Source: Candidatus Nealsoniibacteriota bacterium (lineage in GTDB: Bacteria > Patescibacteriota > Minisyncoccia > Minisyncoccales > PWPS01). From it: a DNA stretch of 34,108 bases. Location of the stretch: the NCBI GenBank assembly GCA_003553505.1, contig PWEN01000050.1, positions 1-34,108 on the forward strand. Reading direction: 5' to 3'. The position numbers and the translations under genes were made by a program. Shown piece by piece: positions 8,156-34,068 of the stretch. How positions within the stretch are numbered: the stretch's first letter is position 1; every line of letters begins with the position of its first letter. The notes under the pieces were generated by a model. It worked only from the letters and a program-made list of their open reading frames with translations. It did not search any database and was not told the DNA's origin.

Positions 8156-8252
8156 TACACGCAGAGAAAAGTAATGATTGGTTTCGGTCCCGTCTATACG
8201 GGATATGGAAACAGTAGGAAAGGTCGATTAAAATAGGATTGTACGATAAAAA

Positions 8253-25320: not shown

Positions 25321-25835
25321 TCGCTATAATAGTTGCACCAAAAGATTTTCGTGACGAGGAGTATTTTATTTCCCTTGATGTTCTTTCTAGAGAGGAGGAT
25401 GTGGTTACGTTTAGTACCAAAAAAGGCCCCATAATAGGAGCGGAAGGGGGAGAAGGAGATGCACAAAAAGAGATAAAGGATATGTCGGTAAGTGAGTTCT
25501 CTGCCATTGTTTTTGTAGGTGGGCCGGGGTGTTTAAAGTTTCTTGACAACGAAGAAAGTTACCGTGTTTTAAGAGAGGCTAATTGTGTACTGGGGGCTAT
25601 ATGTATATCTCCCGTTATACTGGCAAATGCGGGAGTTCTAAAGGGGGTAAGGGCAACTGTTTGGTCTTCTGATATGGAGAGATCACCCATAAGGACCTTG
25701 AAAGAGAAGGGTGCGATACATGAGAACTCTTCTGTTGTTATAGATAAAAGGATTGTTACCGCAAACGGACCTGGTGCAACAAAAGATTTTGCAGAAGCGG
25801 TGCTTGATTTGACAAAAAAACAAAAAGAGATATAA
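25317..25835 (+). CDS. DJ-1/PfpI family protein
   Basis: IVFVGGPGCLKFL, GAICISPVILANAGVLKGVRATVW. Confidence 0.88.
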   Translation: MIAIIVAPKDFRDEEYFISLDVLSREEDVVTFSTKKGPIIGAEGGEGDAQKEIKDMSVSEFSAIVFVGGPGCLKFLDNEESYRVLREANCVLGAICISPVILANAGVLKGVRATVWSSDMERSPIRTLKEKGAIHENSSVVIDKRIVTANGPGATKDFAEAVLDLTKKQKEI

Positions 25836-25853
25836 TTGGTTTATAAAAAATTC

Positions 25854-28802: not shown

Positions 28803-28830
28803 TTGACAAAATAACAAAATCGTGTAATAT
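28803..28830 (+). promoter_or_regulatory. hsp20 promoter
   Basis: TTGACA-N16-TAATAT directly after tRNA-Val. Confidence 0.7.
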
Positions 28831-28872
28831 TTAGGGTGAAAAGGTCGGATTAAAAACCAATCTTTTAAAACT

Positions 28873-29298
28873 ATGTCACTAATTCCATGGAAGCCATTTC
28901 AAGATGCCGACAAGTTCTTTGATGGTGATGAGGACTTCTTCTTTCCTGTTTTTCCAAAGAAGAAAACGGAGCCTGATATGGATATATACGAGACCGAGAA
29001 AGAGGTTGTGGCAGATGTAAACATCCCTAATGTTGACCCTGAAACGATAGAAGTCTCTGTTCAGGATAACGTACTTCATGTTTCTGGAGGGAAAGAAGAA
29101 AAAAAGGAAGAGAAAGACAAGGGTTACTGGAAGCGTGAGATTAGAAGCGGATCGTTTAGTCGTGCGGTAAGGGTTCCTTCTCCAGTTGAAGGCGATAAAG
29201 CAGAAGCGGTTTATGAGAACGGCATCTTAAAGGTAACCATACCCAAGAAAAAAGAGTTGGAAGAAGGAGAAGGGAAAGTGAAGGTGAAGATTAAGTAA
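28873..29298 (+). CDS. Hsp20/alpha-crystallin family small heat shock protein
   Basis: DIYETEKEVVADVNIPNVDPETIEVSVQDNVLHVSGG...RSGSFSRAVRVPSPVEGDKAEAVYENGILKVTIPKK. Confidence 0.95.
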   Translation: MSLIPWKPFQDADKFFDGDEDFFFPVFPKKKTEPDMDIYETEKEVVADVNIPNVDPETIEVSVQDNVLHVSGGKEEKKEEKDKGYWKREIRSGSFSRAVRVPSPVEGDKAEAVYENGILKVTIPKKKELEEGEGKVKVKIK

Positions 29299-29705: not shown

Positions 29706-29723
29706 CGGAAAATTGAAATAAAC

Positions 29724-29757
29724 AAAAAACCCTCACGCTTTGCGAGGGTTTTTTATT
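29724..29757. terminator. Bidirectional terminator
   Basis: aaaaaaccctcacgctttgcgagggttttttatttt. Confidence 0.75.
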
Positions 29758-29771
29758 TTAAAGAAGAGTGA

Positions 29772-30062
29772 TTACCATTCTTCACCTTCTTCCTCGTCGA
29801 TGTCTACATCAAGATCCTCGTCGAGATCGAGATCCTCATCATCGAGGTCCTCATCATCGAGGTCCTCATCATCGAGGTCCTCTTCTTCGTCTTCCTCTTC
29901 TTCATCTTTCATAGAGACGATCTCGTCGTCTCCTTCTTCGTCTTCCTCTTCTTCATCTTTTATTCCGACGATATCTTCTTCTTCGTTCTCCTCTTCTTCG
30001 CCCTCATCAAGTGCACCAAGGACGTCTCTTCTGAGGAGCTCTTCGTGGTCTAAAATGAACAT
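29772..30062 (-). CDS. Highly acidic low-complexity protein (D/E-rich repeats)
   Basis: MFILDHEELLRRDVLGALDEGEEEENEEEDIVGIKDEEEEDEEG...DLDDEDLDDEDLDDEDLDLDEDLD...EEW; own promoter, hairpin with SD, terminator. Confidence 0.75.
   Translation of the reverse strand: MFILDHEELLRRDVLGALDEGEEEENEEEDIVGIKDEEEEDEEGDDEIVSMKDEEEEDEEEDLDDEDLDDEDLDDEDLDLDEDLDVDIDEEEGEEW
29831..29880. repeat. 15-bp tandem repeat (gaggtcctcatcatc) encoding (DLDDE)n on the minus strand
   Basis: Three near-perfect tandem units visible. Confidence 0.85.
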
Positions 30063-30070
30063 ATTTTTTT

Positions 30071-30097
30071 CTCCTACTTTGTTTCGCAAAGAAGGAG
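30071..30097 (-). promoter_or_regulatory. Hairpin that includes the SD of the acidic protein gene
   Basis: Minus strand CTCCTtCTTTG-cgaaa-CAAAGtAGGAG, with AGGAG 8 nt before the ATG at 30062. Confidence 0.65.
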
Positions 30098-30152
30098 AGG
30101 TTAATTCACTTAACACCCTTACAAAGGTGTGTCGACCTTTTGCATAGCACCC

Positions 30153-30180
30153 ATTATAATCAGATACAGATTATTGTCAA
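30153..30180 (-). promoter_or_regulatory. Consensus sigma70 promoter of the acidic protein gene
   Basis: Minus strand TTGACA-N16-TATAAT. Confidence 0.75.
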
Positions 30181-30202
30181 TGGTATCTCTTTGTATTATA
30201 AT
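30174..30202 (+). promoter_or_regulatory. Promoter of the membrane Clp operon, probably leaderless
   Basis: TTGTCA-N17-TATAAT, with ATG 7 nt after the -10. Confidence 0.7.
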
Positions 30203-30208
30203 CAAATA

Positions 30209-30598
30209 ATGTTGCAAATTGCAGAAAAAAGAAACCTGTTCCTTTCTTGGATAAAGTGGCGTTATCTGATACAGCTAAAGGAGATACTTGTAAAGTGGAG
30301 GAACGTGGTATTTTTTATCTTTAATTATTTTTCCCTTTTTCTTCTTTTGCGAACCTATCTCTCTCCTTGGAGAAGGTATAGGTGGTCCTATGGAAGAGGG
30401 TTTGACTTGGGAAGATATGCAGAAGCGGCGCTTGCTAATACTTTTTCACGCTTAATAGGAGCATTTGTACGTACGTTTGTTATTGTTGCTTGTATTTTTT
30501 GTGCCATCTTTGTTTTTATTTGCGGTTTATTCATTGTTCTGTTTTGGATCTTGATTCCTTTTTTGATAATAGCCCTTCTATGTTTAACTTTAAGCTAA
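30209..30598 (+). CDS. Small membrane protein (130 aa) upstream of the Clp ATPase
   Basis: MLQIAEKRNLFLSWIKWRYLIQLKEILVKWRNVVFFIFNYFSLFLLL... with several hydrophobic helices; start chosen from promoter position. Confidence 0.75.
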   Translation: MLQIAEKRNLFLSWIKWRYLIQLKEILVKWRNVVFFIFNYFSLFLLLRTYLSPWRRYRWSYGRGFDLGRYAEAALANTFSRLIGAFVRTFVIVACIFCAIFVFICGLFIVLFWILIPFLIIALLCLTLS

Positions 30599-33081
30599 AG
30601 AAGGCGGCCATTTACCGCGCTGTACTATTAAGGAAGATTCCTCCTTTTCTTCTTTCTGGCTTTTTTAGAGATATTTTCCTTCTTGTTTCCTTTGCTTCTC
30701 TTTCTCTTTTTATTTTTAGAGACAGGGTTGGTTTGGAGTATGAGTATTTTCTGGAAACGAGCATTGTGCTCTTTGCCATATCCTTGATATTTTTTGAAGC
30801 AGGTGCTTTTTTTGCAAAATATCTCTCTGTTCCTCCTCTTTTTATGACACTACAAGAAGCATTGAAGAAAGAGGATGTAAATATTGCTGAGTTTCTTGAC
30901 TTTCCTGCGGCTTGTGCTGTCAGCAAGGCATATTCCATGGGAGGAGTGGACTCTTACCTTGTTCTTTATTTTATAATAAAAGATAGTGACCTCGATTTTG
31001 TATTAACACGTGCCCTTATAGACAAGAGAGAAGTTTTGCGTGATCTTTCTGAGACCTTCAAGAAAAGAGGAAAAATAAGCGACAGATCATTCTCTCCCTG
31101 CTTTAAGAAAACAATGGAGGGAGCGCTGCGGATTGCTGCAAAAAGAGGCAAGGAGAGAATAACGAAAGGAGATATACTTGCTTCTCTTTGTGAGAACAAC
31201 AACTATATGCGGGAGGTTTTGTATCGCGTGAATATGAAAACAACCGATATCATCGATACTGTTTCTTGGCAAGAAGAGATCTTAAAAGAAGAAGAGTCTT
31301 TTTCACGTAAGAGTCTCGCAAAAAAGGGTAGTCTAGCAAGAGAGTGGACGTGTGGATATACAGTTCTTTTGGATAACTTTTCTGTGGACCTAACAGAGAG
31401 CCTGAGAGATGCCGGTTTTCCAAAAACGGTAGGCCACAAGAAGGAGGTAGAGTCGGTGGAAAGAGTTCTTTCACGGAAAGAGACAAATAGTGTTGTGCTG
31501 ACCGGAGAGCCGGGCACGGGAAGGAAAAGCATAATATATGAGCTTGCAAGAAAAAGCTTTTTTGGAGAGTGTTTGCCGGAGGTAAACTATATGCGCATCG
31601 TTAAACTGGATATTACCTCTGTCATTGCAAGCTCGGAGGGAGTCGAGGAGACAGAGATGGTTATCAACAACATATTTAGCGAAGCGACAAATGCAGGAAA
31701 TGTTATTCTTGTAATAGAAGAGATGCACAACTTTGTTGCTGGCGAGAAAAAGCCGGGGGCGGTAAATATATCGGCACTACTCGAGCCTTATCTTCATCAT
31801 CCTTCTTTTCGACTCATAGGCGTAACCAGTTTTCTTGGGTTCCGTAAACAAGTGGAAGACAATCCTTCTCTTCTTTCTCTTATGGAGAAAGTCGAAGTGA
31901 GTGAAATATCAAAGAAGGAAACTCTTAGACTATTGGAGATGATGATTCCTTATCTCGAGAGGAAGTATAAGAAGTTTATATCTTTTGGAGCATTAAAAAA
32001 GATAATAAACCTATCGGATCGTTATATGCCAAATGATCCCTTTCCGGAAAAAGCGATGGACATACTGGAAGAAGCAGCGGTTCACGTAAGTCAAAAAAAA
32101 GAGTCCTTTCTTCTTCCACATCATGTGGCGGATATAATATCCGAAAAAACAGAGATTCCTGTGGGGGAGATAGACAAAGAAGAAAAAGAAACCCTTCTCC
32201 ACCTGGAAGAGTTGATGCATGAGAGGATAGTTAATCAGGACATGGCTGTAAAGGAAGTTTCTTCGTCTTTACGTAGATCGAGAACGGGAGTCACAACCAG
32301 AAAGGGACTCATGGGGAGCTTCCTTTTTCTTGGTCCCACGGGAGTAGGGAAGACGGAAACGGCAAAGGCGATAGCGGACATATACTTTAAATCGCAGAAA
32401 AGAATGATACGCATAGATATGTCCGAGTTTCAAGAGATATCAGACGTCTCAAGATTAATAGGATCTGAAAGACAAGAGGGAGTTTTATCTTCCAAAGTAA
32501 GAGAGAATCCCTTTTCTCTCATTTTACTAGACGAGATAGAGAAATCTCATCCCGATATATTGAATATATTTTTGCAGATACTGGATGAGGGGCATCTTAC
32601 AGACGGAGCTGGAAGGAAGGTGGATTTCAAGAGTACTATGATAATAGCTACCAGCAACGCGGGATACCAGATCATTATTGATTCTATGGAGAAAGGAGAG
32701 GACTGGGGAGAGTTAAAGAAAAAGATTCTCGGGCGTTTGTTTCAGGAGTCCGTGTTTCGTCCGGAGTTTGTTAATCGTTTCGATGGAGTAGTATTGTTTG
32801 AGCCGCTCAGCAAAGAGCATCTTGTTTCTATATCCGGCATGCAACTTGAAAGGGTTGCGGAAGACTTGAAAGAAAAAGACATAGAATTTATAATATCGGA
32901 AGATTTAAAAAGGTCGATAGTTGAAATGAGTTACGACCCCTTATTTGGAGCAAGAGAGATGCAGCGTATAGTGCAAGACAAAGTTGGAAACACTATCTCT
33001 TCTGCCATATTAAGAGAGGAGATAAAGAGAGGGGATCGTTTCACGATAAATATGGATGATTTTTCCATTATTAAACATTAA
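30580..33081 (+). CDS. Membrane-anchored ClpA/ClpC-like AAA+ ATPase
   Basis: Two N-terminal TM helices, atypical D1 (GEPGTGRKS, LVIEEMH), canonical D2 (GPTGVGKTETAKAIA, ILLDEIEKSHPDI, RPEFVNRFD, FGAREMQR); ATG 30580 preferred. Confidence 0.9.
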   Translation: MFNFKLKKAAIYRAVLLRKIPPFLLSGFFRDIFLLVSFASLSLFIFRDRVGLEYEYFLETSIVLFAISLIFFEAGAFFAKYLSVPPLFMTLQEALKKEDVNIAEFLDFPAACAVSKAYSMGGVDSYLVLYFIIKDSDLDFVLTRALIDKREVLRDLSETFKKRGKISDRSFSPCFKKTMEGALRIAAKRGKERITKGDILASLCENNNYMREVLYRVNMKTTDIIDTVSWQEEILKEEESFSRKSLAKKGSLAREWTCGYTVLLDNFSVDLTESLRDAGFPKTVGHKKEVESVERVLSRKETNSVVLTGEPGTGRKSIIYELARKSFFGECLPEVNYMRIVKLDITSVIASSEGVEETEMVINNIFSEATNAGNVILVIEEMHNFVAGEKKPGAVNISALLEPYLHHPSFRLIGVTSFLGFRKQVEDNPSLLSLMEKVEVSEISKKETLRLLEMMIPYLERKYKKFISFGALKKIINLSDRYMPNDPFPEKAMDILEEAAVHVSQKKESFLLPHHVADIISEKTEIPVGEIDKEEKETLLHLEELMHERIVNQDMAVKEVSSSLRRSRTGVTTRKGLMGSFLFLGPTGVGKTETAKAIADIYFKSQKRMIRIDMSEFQEISDVSRLIGSERQEGVLSSKVRENPFSLILLDEIEKSHPDILNIFLQILDEGHLTDGAGRKVDFKSTMIIATSNAGYQIIIDSMEKGEDWGELKKKILGRLFQESVFRPEFVNRFDGVVLFEPLSKEHLVSISGMQLERVAEDLKEKDIEFIISEDLKRSIVEMSYDPLFGAREMQRIVQDKVGNTISSAILREEIKRGDRFTINMDDFSIIKH

Positions 33082-33093
33082 TTAAGTTAATTT

Positions 33094-34068
33094 ATGACAA
33101 AAGGACATTTAGTTGCTGTTATTGTTCTCGTTGTTGTTCTTGTGGGAGGGGGTGTGTTCTATACAATGCAAGAAAGAACACCCTCTGATCCTGAAGAAGC
33201 GATAGAGAGAATGGTGAGCAACATGAACGACGTTCATTCCTTTGCCGCAGAAATGAACATGGACATGGAGTTAAGAGATGAGCGTGAGGAGTTCGATATT
33301 TCTCTTTTCATGGACATGAAAACTTCCACCAAAAGAGACAAAGAATCCTTTGAGGGTGACATAGATATCGATGCTTTCGTTGAAGGAGAGCAGTTCGATA
33401 TGGGGTTGGCAGCGAAGGTGGTTGACGAAAAAGCTTACTTCAAAGTGACATCTCTCCCTCAGATTGTGGTTGATGATATTGGTCCTATGGCAAGAGGATT
33501 TGAGAATATCTGGATAGGAATTGATATATCAGAAATGGAGGAAGAGATGGACGATGTTGATATTGACGAGGAGAAACTTCGTGAGGCGGTGATGTCTGTG
33601 TTTGATGACAAAGACCTCTACACTGCCACTGAGGTTGACGAGAGCTCTGACTGGGTAGAGTACAGTGTTTCCTTTGATGAGGATGTTCTCATCGAAACGT
33701 TAAAGGATTTAGTGTCTGTTTTGGCGGAAATCCCTGAAACGGGAATAAGAAGCGGTGACATTGACTTCGATGAGTTGCGCGTTGTTTTTGACATGATGGA
33801 GGAGGACTTAGAGGTTAACCTAAAGATAGGAAAGAGAGACGGTTATCTTTATGGCGTTTCTTTTGAGAACTCCCTTCACGAACCCGGAGGAGATGGAGTG
33901 ATGCATTTTTCCTTCGACATCTCTATGTCTGACTTCAATGAAGACTTTGAGATAGAGGCTCCGGAGGAATATCAAGATCTCATGGAGATGTTTGGACCTA
34001 TGATGATGCCTCAAGACCCAATGACTCCTGGGGAAGTAGACGAGGATATGATGGAACAGATGTTCTAA
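33094..34068 (+). CDS. Secreted/membrane-anchored LppX/LolA-like protein
   Basis: N-terminal TM, amphipathic beta-rich domain, Met-rich tail; next to the Clp gene. Confidence 0.6.
   Translation: MTKGHLVAVIVLVVVLVGGGVFYTMQERTPSDPEEAIERMVSNMNDVHSFAAEMNMDMELRDEREEFDISLFMDMKTSTKRDKESFEGDIDIDAFVEGEQFDMGLAAKVVDEKAYFKVTSLPQIVVDDIGPMARGFENIWIGIDISEMEEEMDDVDIDEEKLREAVMSVFDDKDLYTATEVDESSDWVEYSVSFDEDVLIETLKDLVSVLAEIPETGIRSGDIDFDELRVVFDMMEEDLEVNLKIGKRDGYLYGVSFENSLHEPGGDGVMHFSFDISMSDFNEDFEIEAPEEYQDLMEMFGPMMMPQDPMTPGEVDEDMMEQMF

What the first reader, a model, noticed from the sequence alone, without database searches (positions are those of the whole stretch)
30146..30211. Back-to-back promoters with overlapping -35 boxes
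The 7-nt TTGTCAA serves as TTGTCA (+, 30174-30179; N17; TATAAT 30197-30202) and as TTGACA on the minus strand (30175-30180; N16; TATAAT 30153-30158). RNA polymerase cannot occupy both at once, so the acidic protein and the membrane Clp operon should be mutually exclusive. The plus transcript would start at or next to its ATG (30209), i.e. be leaderless.
Basis: seen in the sequence. Interest (0 to 1): 0.7.

Follow-up and report, generated by a model that had tools for sequence, protein, structure and literature searches.

The report
Divergent promoters sharing one -35 box
Two genes of a small-genome bacterium (Patescibacteria) are read in opposite directions from promoters that really do share a seven-letter box, but relatives keep both promoters without sharing it, so the sharing is probably compaction; what evolution keeps is a leaderless messenger for a membrane Clp operon and, on the other side, an unusual leader motif, in a lineage whose ribosomal RNA lacks the usual start-finding sequence.

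Summary
It is the only such pair in 294 kb sampled from this genome. Among 15 homologous family loci, the minus promoter (14/15, always a 16-nt spacer) and a -10 box 12-14 nt before the + gene's ATG (14/15) are conserved, so both promoters, and a leaderless membrane-Clp mRNA, are well supported. The shared -35 is not conserved: it occurs in 3/15 loci (own genome, its congener, one species of another genus). Elsewhere TTGTCA lies 28-101 nt from the plus -10, or about 490 bp from the gene. Mutual exclusion is therefore not the conserved logic; brief steric competition is possible here. Beyond the finding: the minus mRNA begins with AAAAGGUCG, a family-wide element found about 24 nt before many AUGs (hsp20, HU, pilins). 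In 29/29 16S tails read from this order the CCUCC anti-Shine-Dalgarno is missing; 26/28 from other classes of the phylum keep it. Leaderless and AAAGGUCG-led mRNAs may be its SD-free ways to start translation. No transcript data exist; start sites, competition and translation roles are inferred.

The parts
30174..30179 (+). plus -35 TTGTCA (5/6), inside the shared TTGTCAA 30174-30180
   Evidence: spacer of 17 only in G000, G001, G007
30197..30202 (+). plus -10 TATAAT; predicted start of transcription at about 30209
   Evidence: -10 box 12-14 nt before the ATG in 14/15 family loci
30175..30180 (-). minus -35 TTGACA (6/6), followed by A (TTGACAA)
   Evidence: TTGACAA conserved in 14/15 family loci; the 15th, G011, keeps it about 490 bp away
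30153..30158 (-). minus -10 TATAAT, 16-nt spacer
   Evidence: spacer of 16 and 6/6 -10 in all 14 loci plus L022 and L046
30145..30145 (-). predicted minus transcription start (an A; inferred from distance to the -10 and the CTA(G) of relatives)
   Evidence: inference
30133..30141 (-). AAAAGGTCG leader element near the 5' end of the minus transcript
   Evidence: invariant in the 10 family leaders aligned
30113..30130 (-). leader hairpin 1
   Evidence: leader MFE -20.2, z -4.2 against mononucleotide shuffles
30070..30098 (-). leader hairpin 2; its 3' arm holds the AGGAG that resembles a Shine-Dalgarno
29772..30062 (-). 96-aa Asp/Glu-rich protein, ATG at 30062
   Evidence: no Pfam or NCBIfam match; acidic counterparts at the same divergent place in relatives
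29720..29758 (-). intrinsic terminator after the acidic gene (17-bp stem, T run)
30209..30598 (+). 129-aa protein, membrane protein by its hydrophobic stretches; first gene of the operon, predicted leaderless
   Evidence: (matches in 52 of 60 genomes); no Pfam or NCBIfam match
30580..33081 (+). 833-aa Clp/HSP100-type AAA+ ATPase with an N-terminal hydrophobic region (read by eye); overlaps the previous gene by 19 nt
   Evidence: AAA_2, ClpB_D2-small; below all equivalog cut-offs
33094..34068 (+). 324-aa protein with an N-terminal hydrophobic segment, probably same operon
   Evidence: no Pfam match
28803..28848 (+). hsp20 promoter (TTGACA, TAATAT) and its AAAAGGTCGG leader element (28839-28848)
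28873..29298 (+). Hsp20-type small heat-shock protein gene
   Evidence: best match Hsp18, below cut-off

Best explanation
Two ordinary sigma-70-type promoters stand back to back. The minus promoter is the constrained one: TTGACAA, 16 nt, TATAAT, then an mRNA that begins with AAAAGGUCG and two hairpins and encodes an acidic protein. The plus promoter places TATAAT so that transcription starts at the AUG of a membrane protein-Clp operon, giving a leaderless mRNA. Because TTGnCAA is palindromic, the invariant minus -35 can also serve the plus promoter when the space between TTGTCA and the plus -10 shrinks to 17 nt, as in this genus and in one species of another genus. The consequence is at most brief steric competition between polymerases, not a conserved either/or switch. 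Shown by sequence and conservation: both promoters, their spacings, the leaderless geometry and the lineage-restricted sharing. Inferred: start sites, promoter activity, competition, and that the leader element and the leaderless start serve translation without Shine-Dalgarno pairing.
For: Coordinates and scores; rarity; minus spacer of 16 and 6/6 -10 in all 14 family loci with the element plus two loci of other families; -10 box 12-14 nt before ATG in 14/15 family loci, also in more distant loci with different upstream genes; sharing (spacer 17) only in L001, L003, L004, with spacers 28, 28, 28, 33, 37, 38, 40, 59, 70, 90 and 101 elsewhere and a distance of about 490 bp in G011; in family loci without sharing the best plus -35 is only 3/6-4/6; on the tree g1 lies outside (g4, g3) although one g4 member shares and the other does not.
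Against: No transcript data exist for any of these genomes. The plus promoter is near consensus, so competition could be stronger here than in the E. coli examples. Sharing at exactly 17 nt, the optimum, in two genera could reflect selection rather than compaction. Chance controls used first-order Markov sequence. Several genomes are incomplete drafts (own genome 68%).
Confidence: 0.75

Rival explanations
1. The shared -35 is a regulatory switch: polymerase bound in one direction excludes the other, so the acidic protein and the Clp operon are expressed alternately.
For: Near-consensus boxes in both directions with overlapping footprints; the plus -10 sits at the optimal 17 nt in three genomes of two genera.
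Against: Absent in 12 of 15 family loci, where both promoters persist apart; overlapping E. coli promoters show no measurable competition at basal activity (PMC12825309).
Confidence: 0.12
2. Only the minus promoter uses this -35; the plus gene starts from its TATAAT without needing a -35, and the TTGTCA match on + is a by-product of the palindromic TTGnCAA.
For: Plus promoters of non-sharing relatives have no good -35 (3/6-4/6) yet keep the -10 at the same place; TTGACAA is invariant for the minus promoter.
Against: In the sharers the spacer is exactly 17, the optimum, and the next closest spacer in the family is 28.
Confidence: 0.3
3. Chance alignment of promoter-like strings in A+T-rich DNA.
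For: Promoter-like hits in the region are only slightly above shuffles overall (21 against 16.3).
Against: Only pair in 294 kb, one pair in 15 simulations; element-by-element conservation across the family.
Confidence: 0.02
4. AAAAGGTCG at the start of the minus mRNA is a DNA operator of a heat-shock regulator rather than an RNA leader element.
For: It sits just after the -10 of hsp20 and of the acidic gene next to a Clp operon.
Against: It also precedes HU, pilins, GroES and genes inside clusters without a nearby TATAAT; its distance to ATG is narrow while its distance to TATAAT varies from 2 to 28 nt.
Confidence: 0.12

Closest known systems
Bidirectional promoters of E. coli and Salmonella (PMC12825309, PMC10268837)
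   Same: symmetric core promoter DNA lets polymerase bind in two orientations that exclude each other
   Different: those share a -10 and start 7-25 bp apart; here the -35 is shared and predicted starts are about 64 bp apart
Divergent (back-to-back) sigma-70 promoters between divergent genes
   Same: two complete promoters facing away from each other between two transcription units
   Different: the -35 boxes coincide in one palindromic heptamer, in a minority of relatives
Leaderless mRNAs of bacteria and archaea
   Same: -10 box placed so that transcription should begin at or next to the AUG
   Different: conserved for one proteostasis operon in a lineage whose 16S tail lacks CCUCC; not verified by start-site mapping
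Organisms lacking an anti-Shine-Dalgarno (Bacteroidetes, Mycoplasma and others; PMC6107228, PMC10783764)
   Same: no CCUCC in the 16S tail and few SD-like sequences before genes
   Different: here an order of Patescibacteria, with a distinct upstream motif AAAGGTCG about 24 nt before AUG in one family; neither was found in the papers searched, which does not prove that it is unreported

Membership tests
Divergent sigma-70 promoter pair with overlapping -35 | complete -35/-10 in both directions with overlapping -35 boxes | tested here: met
Divergent sigma-70 promoter pair with overlapping -35 | both directions transcribed from the predicted starts | not testable with these tools
   no RNA data for these uncultured genomes
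Mutually exclusive promoter switch | the overlap is conserved where both genes are | tested here: not met
   3 of 15 family loci
Bidirectional promoter in the sense of Warman and Grainger | divergent starts 7-25 bp apart around a shared -10 | tested here: not met
   predicted starts 30145 and 30209, about 64 bp apart
Leaderless mRNA | -10 box about 12-14 nt before AUG, no room for a leader | tested here: met
   14/15 family loci; L032 has TATAAT 21 nt before its ATG
Leaderless mRNA | mapped 5' end at the AUG | not testable with these tools
   needs dRNA-seq or 5' RACE
Shine-Dalgarno-led gene (acidic gene) | free SD 5-10 nt before AUG | tested here: not met
   its AGGAG lies in a hairpin arm
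Shine-Dalgarno-led gene (acidic gene) | CCUCC in the 16S tail of the organism | tested here: inconclusive
   absent in 29/29 tails of the order, two of them from the same family; the window's own assembly has no 16S
CIRCE/HrcA heat-shock operator at the acidic promoter | TTAGCACTC-N9-GAGTGCTAA | tested here: not met
   by inspection of the leaders; CIRCE-like repeats seen only before hsp20 of some g3 genomes and GroES of G005

The most novel reading that the evidence does not exclude
In a Patescibacteria lineage whose ribosomes have lost the anti-Shine-Dalgarno, AAAGGUCG about 24 nt before the AUG (counted with hairpins folded out, for the acidic gene) is a new non-SD signal for translation initiation, used side by side with leaderless mRNAs; this divergent proteostasis locus carries one of each.
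Probability: 0.4. Interest if true: 0.85.

Novelty: new variant of a known kind. Interest (0 to 1): 0.5.

Why it matters
As a promoter curiosity it is modest: it shows how the palindrome TTGnCAA lets one -35 serve both directions once the DNA between divergent genes shrinks, an analogue of the known -10 symmetry. It matters more as an entry point: how cells choose start codons without an anti-Shine-Dalgarno is an open question, and this locus pairs a conserved leaderless operon with a conserved, spaced leader motif in a lineage where CCUCC is missing, which gives a concrete sequence to test.

Tried and rejected
Heat-shock operator reading of AAAAGGTCG: not preferred, because the motif keeps its distance to ATG rather than to the -10 and precedes unrelated genes. 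SD for the acidic gene: its AGGAG is in a hairpin arm. Pairing of AAAGGUCG with 16S: CGACCT in helix 42 occurs in other families too, and GACCTTT in G007 was not seen in the G002 half; no family-specific partner, none in the 3' tail. Rfam at gathering thresholds gave only tRNAs. The acidic protein found no homologue by search, probably because of low complexity; counterparts were found by position. Phylum-wide, AAAGGTCG-N21-28-ATG was not above its reversed control in most genomes, so the element is not general. A covariation count on the leader hairpins was not made, because the alignment did not align the second hairpin well. The automatic start choice was wrong for L032 (it took TAACAT); its TATAAT lies 21 nt before the ATG and 28 nt from TTGTCA.

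Full report
OBSERVATION. On +: TTGTCA 30174-30179, 17 nt, TATAAT 30197-30202, ATG 30209. On -: TTGACA 30180-30175, 16 nt, TATAAT 30158-30153. Scores 11/12 and 12/12. In 294 kb sampled from this genome no other divergent pair has overlapping -35 boxes with at least 5/6 in all four hexamers, and 15 Markov simulations gave one, weaker, pair in total.

SURROUNDINGS. On the minus strand lies a 96-aa Asp/Glu-rich protein, ATG 30062, with an intrinsic terminator after it. On + lie a 129-aa membrane protein (hydrophobicity read by eye, no Pfam or NCBIfam match) and an 833-aa Clp/HSP100-type AAA+ protein overlapping it by 19 nt. An Hsp20-type gene lies about 1 kb away (28873). The 129-aa protein has matches in 52 of 60 genomes. 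The closest named relatives of the Clp protein are Patescibacteria (Nealsonbacteria, Staskawiczbacteria).

CONSERVATION. I compared 15 loci of the family and 35 of the order. The minus promoter is nearly frozen: TTGACAA, exactly 16 nt, TATAAT in 14 of 15 family loci and in two loci of other families (L022, L046). In one of the 14 (L010, G003) it serves hsp20 instead of the acidic gene. In the fifteenth, G011, the same promoter with its acidic gene stands about 490 bp from the + gene. The plus gene has a -10 box starting 12-14 nt before its ATG in 14 of 15 loci (TATAAT in 13, TATACT in L012); in L032 TATAAT lies 21 nt before the ATG, read because the automatic choice was wrong there. About nine order-level loci with different upstream genes also have TATAAT 12-14 nt before the ATG; the start was chosen among in-frame ATGs, which favours a match. 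Two Staskawiczbacteria loci show the same geometry. The leaderless reading is well supported, though not proven.

THE SHARED BOX IS NOT CONSERVED. The distance from TTGTCA to the plus -10 is 17 only in G000, its congener G001 and G007. In the others it is 28 to 101, with no good alternative -35 at the right place (3/6-4/6). On the tree of the operon proteins the genus of the window branches outside the pair (g4, g3), with moderate support (91/93 and 91/92); G007 (g4) shares and G004 (g4) does not. So sharing arose twice, or once with later losses.

MECHANISM. TTGnCAA is palindromic, so the invariant minus TTGACAA offers a 5/6 -35 in the other direction at no cost; only the plus -10 has to come to the right distance. 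Footprints then overlap and polymerases must take turns. Whether that matters depends on occupancy: at five E. coli promoters with a shared -10, loss of one direction did not raise the other at basal activity, and competition appeared only on activation (PMC12825309). The present promoters differ in geometry (predicted starts about 64 bp apart), so this is an analogy.

BEYOND THE FINDING: LEADER ELEMENT. The minus mRNA starts with AAAAGGTCG. The same element lies in the hsp20 leader (28839-28847). Across stretches of five family genomes (880 genes called by a simple ORF caller), AAGGTCG occurs 26 times in the 100 nt before starts, 19 of them within one 10-nt window (-38 to -29), against 75 occurrences on both strands of 754 kb in total; the 100 nt before 880 genes are about 6% of that sequence. 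In a separate count AGGTCG was at -40 to -24 in 18 genes and in three control windows together in 2. AAAGGTCG-N22-27-ATG gives 131 matches in 16 family genomes against 46 for the reversed pattern. Downstream genes include hsp20, HU, pilins, GroES and small acidic membrane proteins (names given by eye except hsp20). Among hits chosen by a nearby TATAAT, the distance to ATG clusters at 21-29 nt while the distance to TATAAT varies from 2 to 28 nt, which favours an RNA-level role. The acidic gene is an exception, 51-81 nt in g1, g3 and g4. Its leader folds into hairpins (z below -3.7 in six of ten family leaders, against mononucleotide shuffles), leaving 12-24 unpaired nt in nine of ten, while in genus g2 the leader is 21-25 nt long without strong hairpins. 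One long leader (G004) leaves only 4, so the idea of a preserved effective distance is suggestive only.

ANTI-SHINE-DALGARNO. The 16S tails of this order, including two family members (G007, G002), lack CCTCC after helix 45 in all 29 cases read, and so does one other member of the class (G084). Of 28 tails from other classes of the phylum 26 keep it; the two others carry CCGCC and CTTCC. The window's own genome has no 16S in its assembly, so its state is inferred from relatives. SD-like sequences near starts are few, 1-9% of genes, though above the control windows in G000 and G002. Lack of an anti-SD is known in other bacteria (PMC6107228, PMC10783764); I did not find it reported for this lineage in the papers searched, which is no proof of novelty. 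No family-specific pairing partner of AAAGGUCG in 16S was found.

VERDICT. Observation confirmed; promoters and leaderless start supported; mutual exclusion as a conserved switch not supported. The more interesting lead is SD-free start of translation.

Noticed in passing
window 28839-28847, 155-162, 8219-8226 (+); 30133-30141 (-); L051-L100, L151-L180: Family-wide leader element AAAGGTCG about 24 nt before the ATG of many genes, in leaders without an obvious Shine-Dalgarno.
   Followed up: partly
L181, L183, L188-L216 (order) against L317-L345 (other classes): 16S rRNA 3' tails of the order lack the CCUCC anti-Shine-Dalgarno in 29 of 29 cases, while 26 of 28 from other classes of the phylum keep it.
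   Followed up: partly
L056, L067, L068, L073 (hsp20), L180 (GroES): CIRCE-like inverted repeats stand directly before the AAAGGTCG element, suggesting HrcA control of these genes in some relatives.
   Followed up: no
window 29720-29758: A long symmetric terminator hairpin between the convergent acylphosphatase-like and acidic genes, probably serving both.
   Followed up: no
window 25809-25836: A perfect 12/12 sigma-70 promoter upstream of the ribosomal protein L10 gene.
   Followed up: no
L166 (G001:C4:4147-5443): Several small genes in a row, each with its own AAAGGTCG leader and most with an inverted repeat just before it.
   Followed up: no
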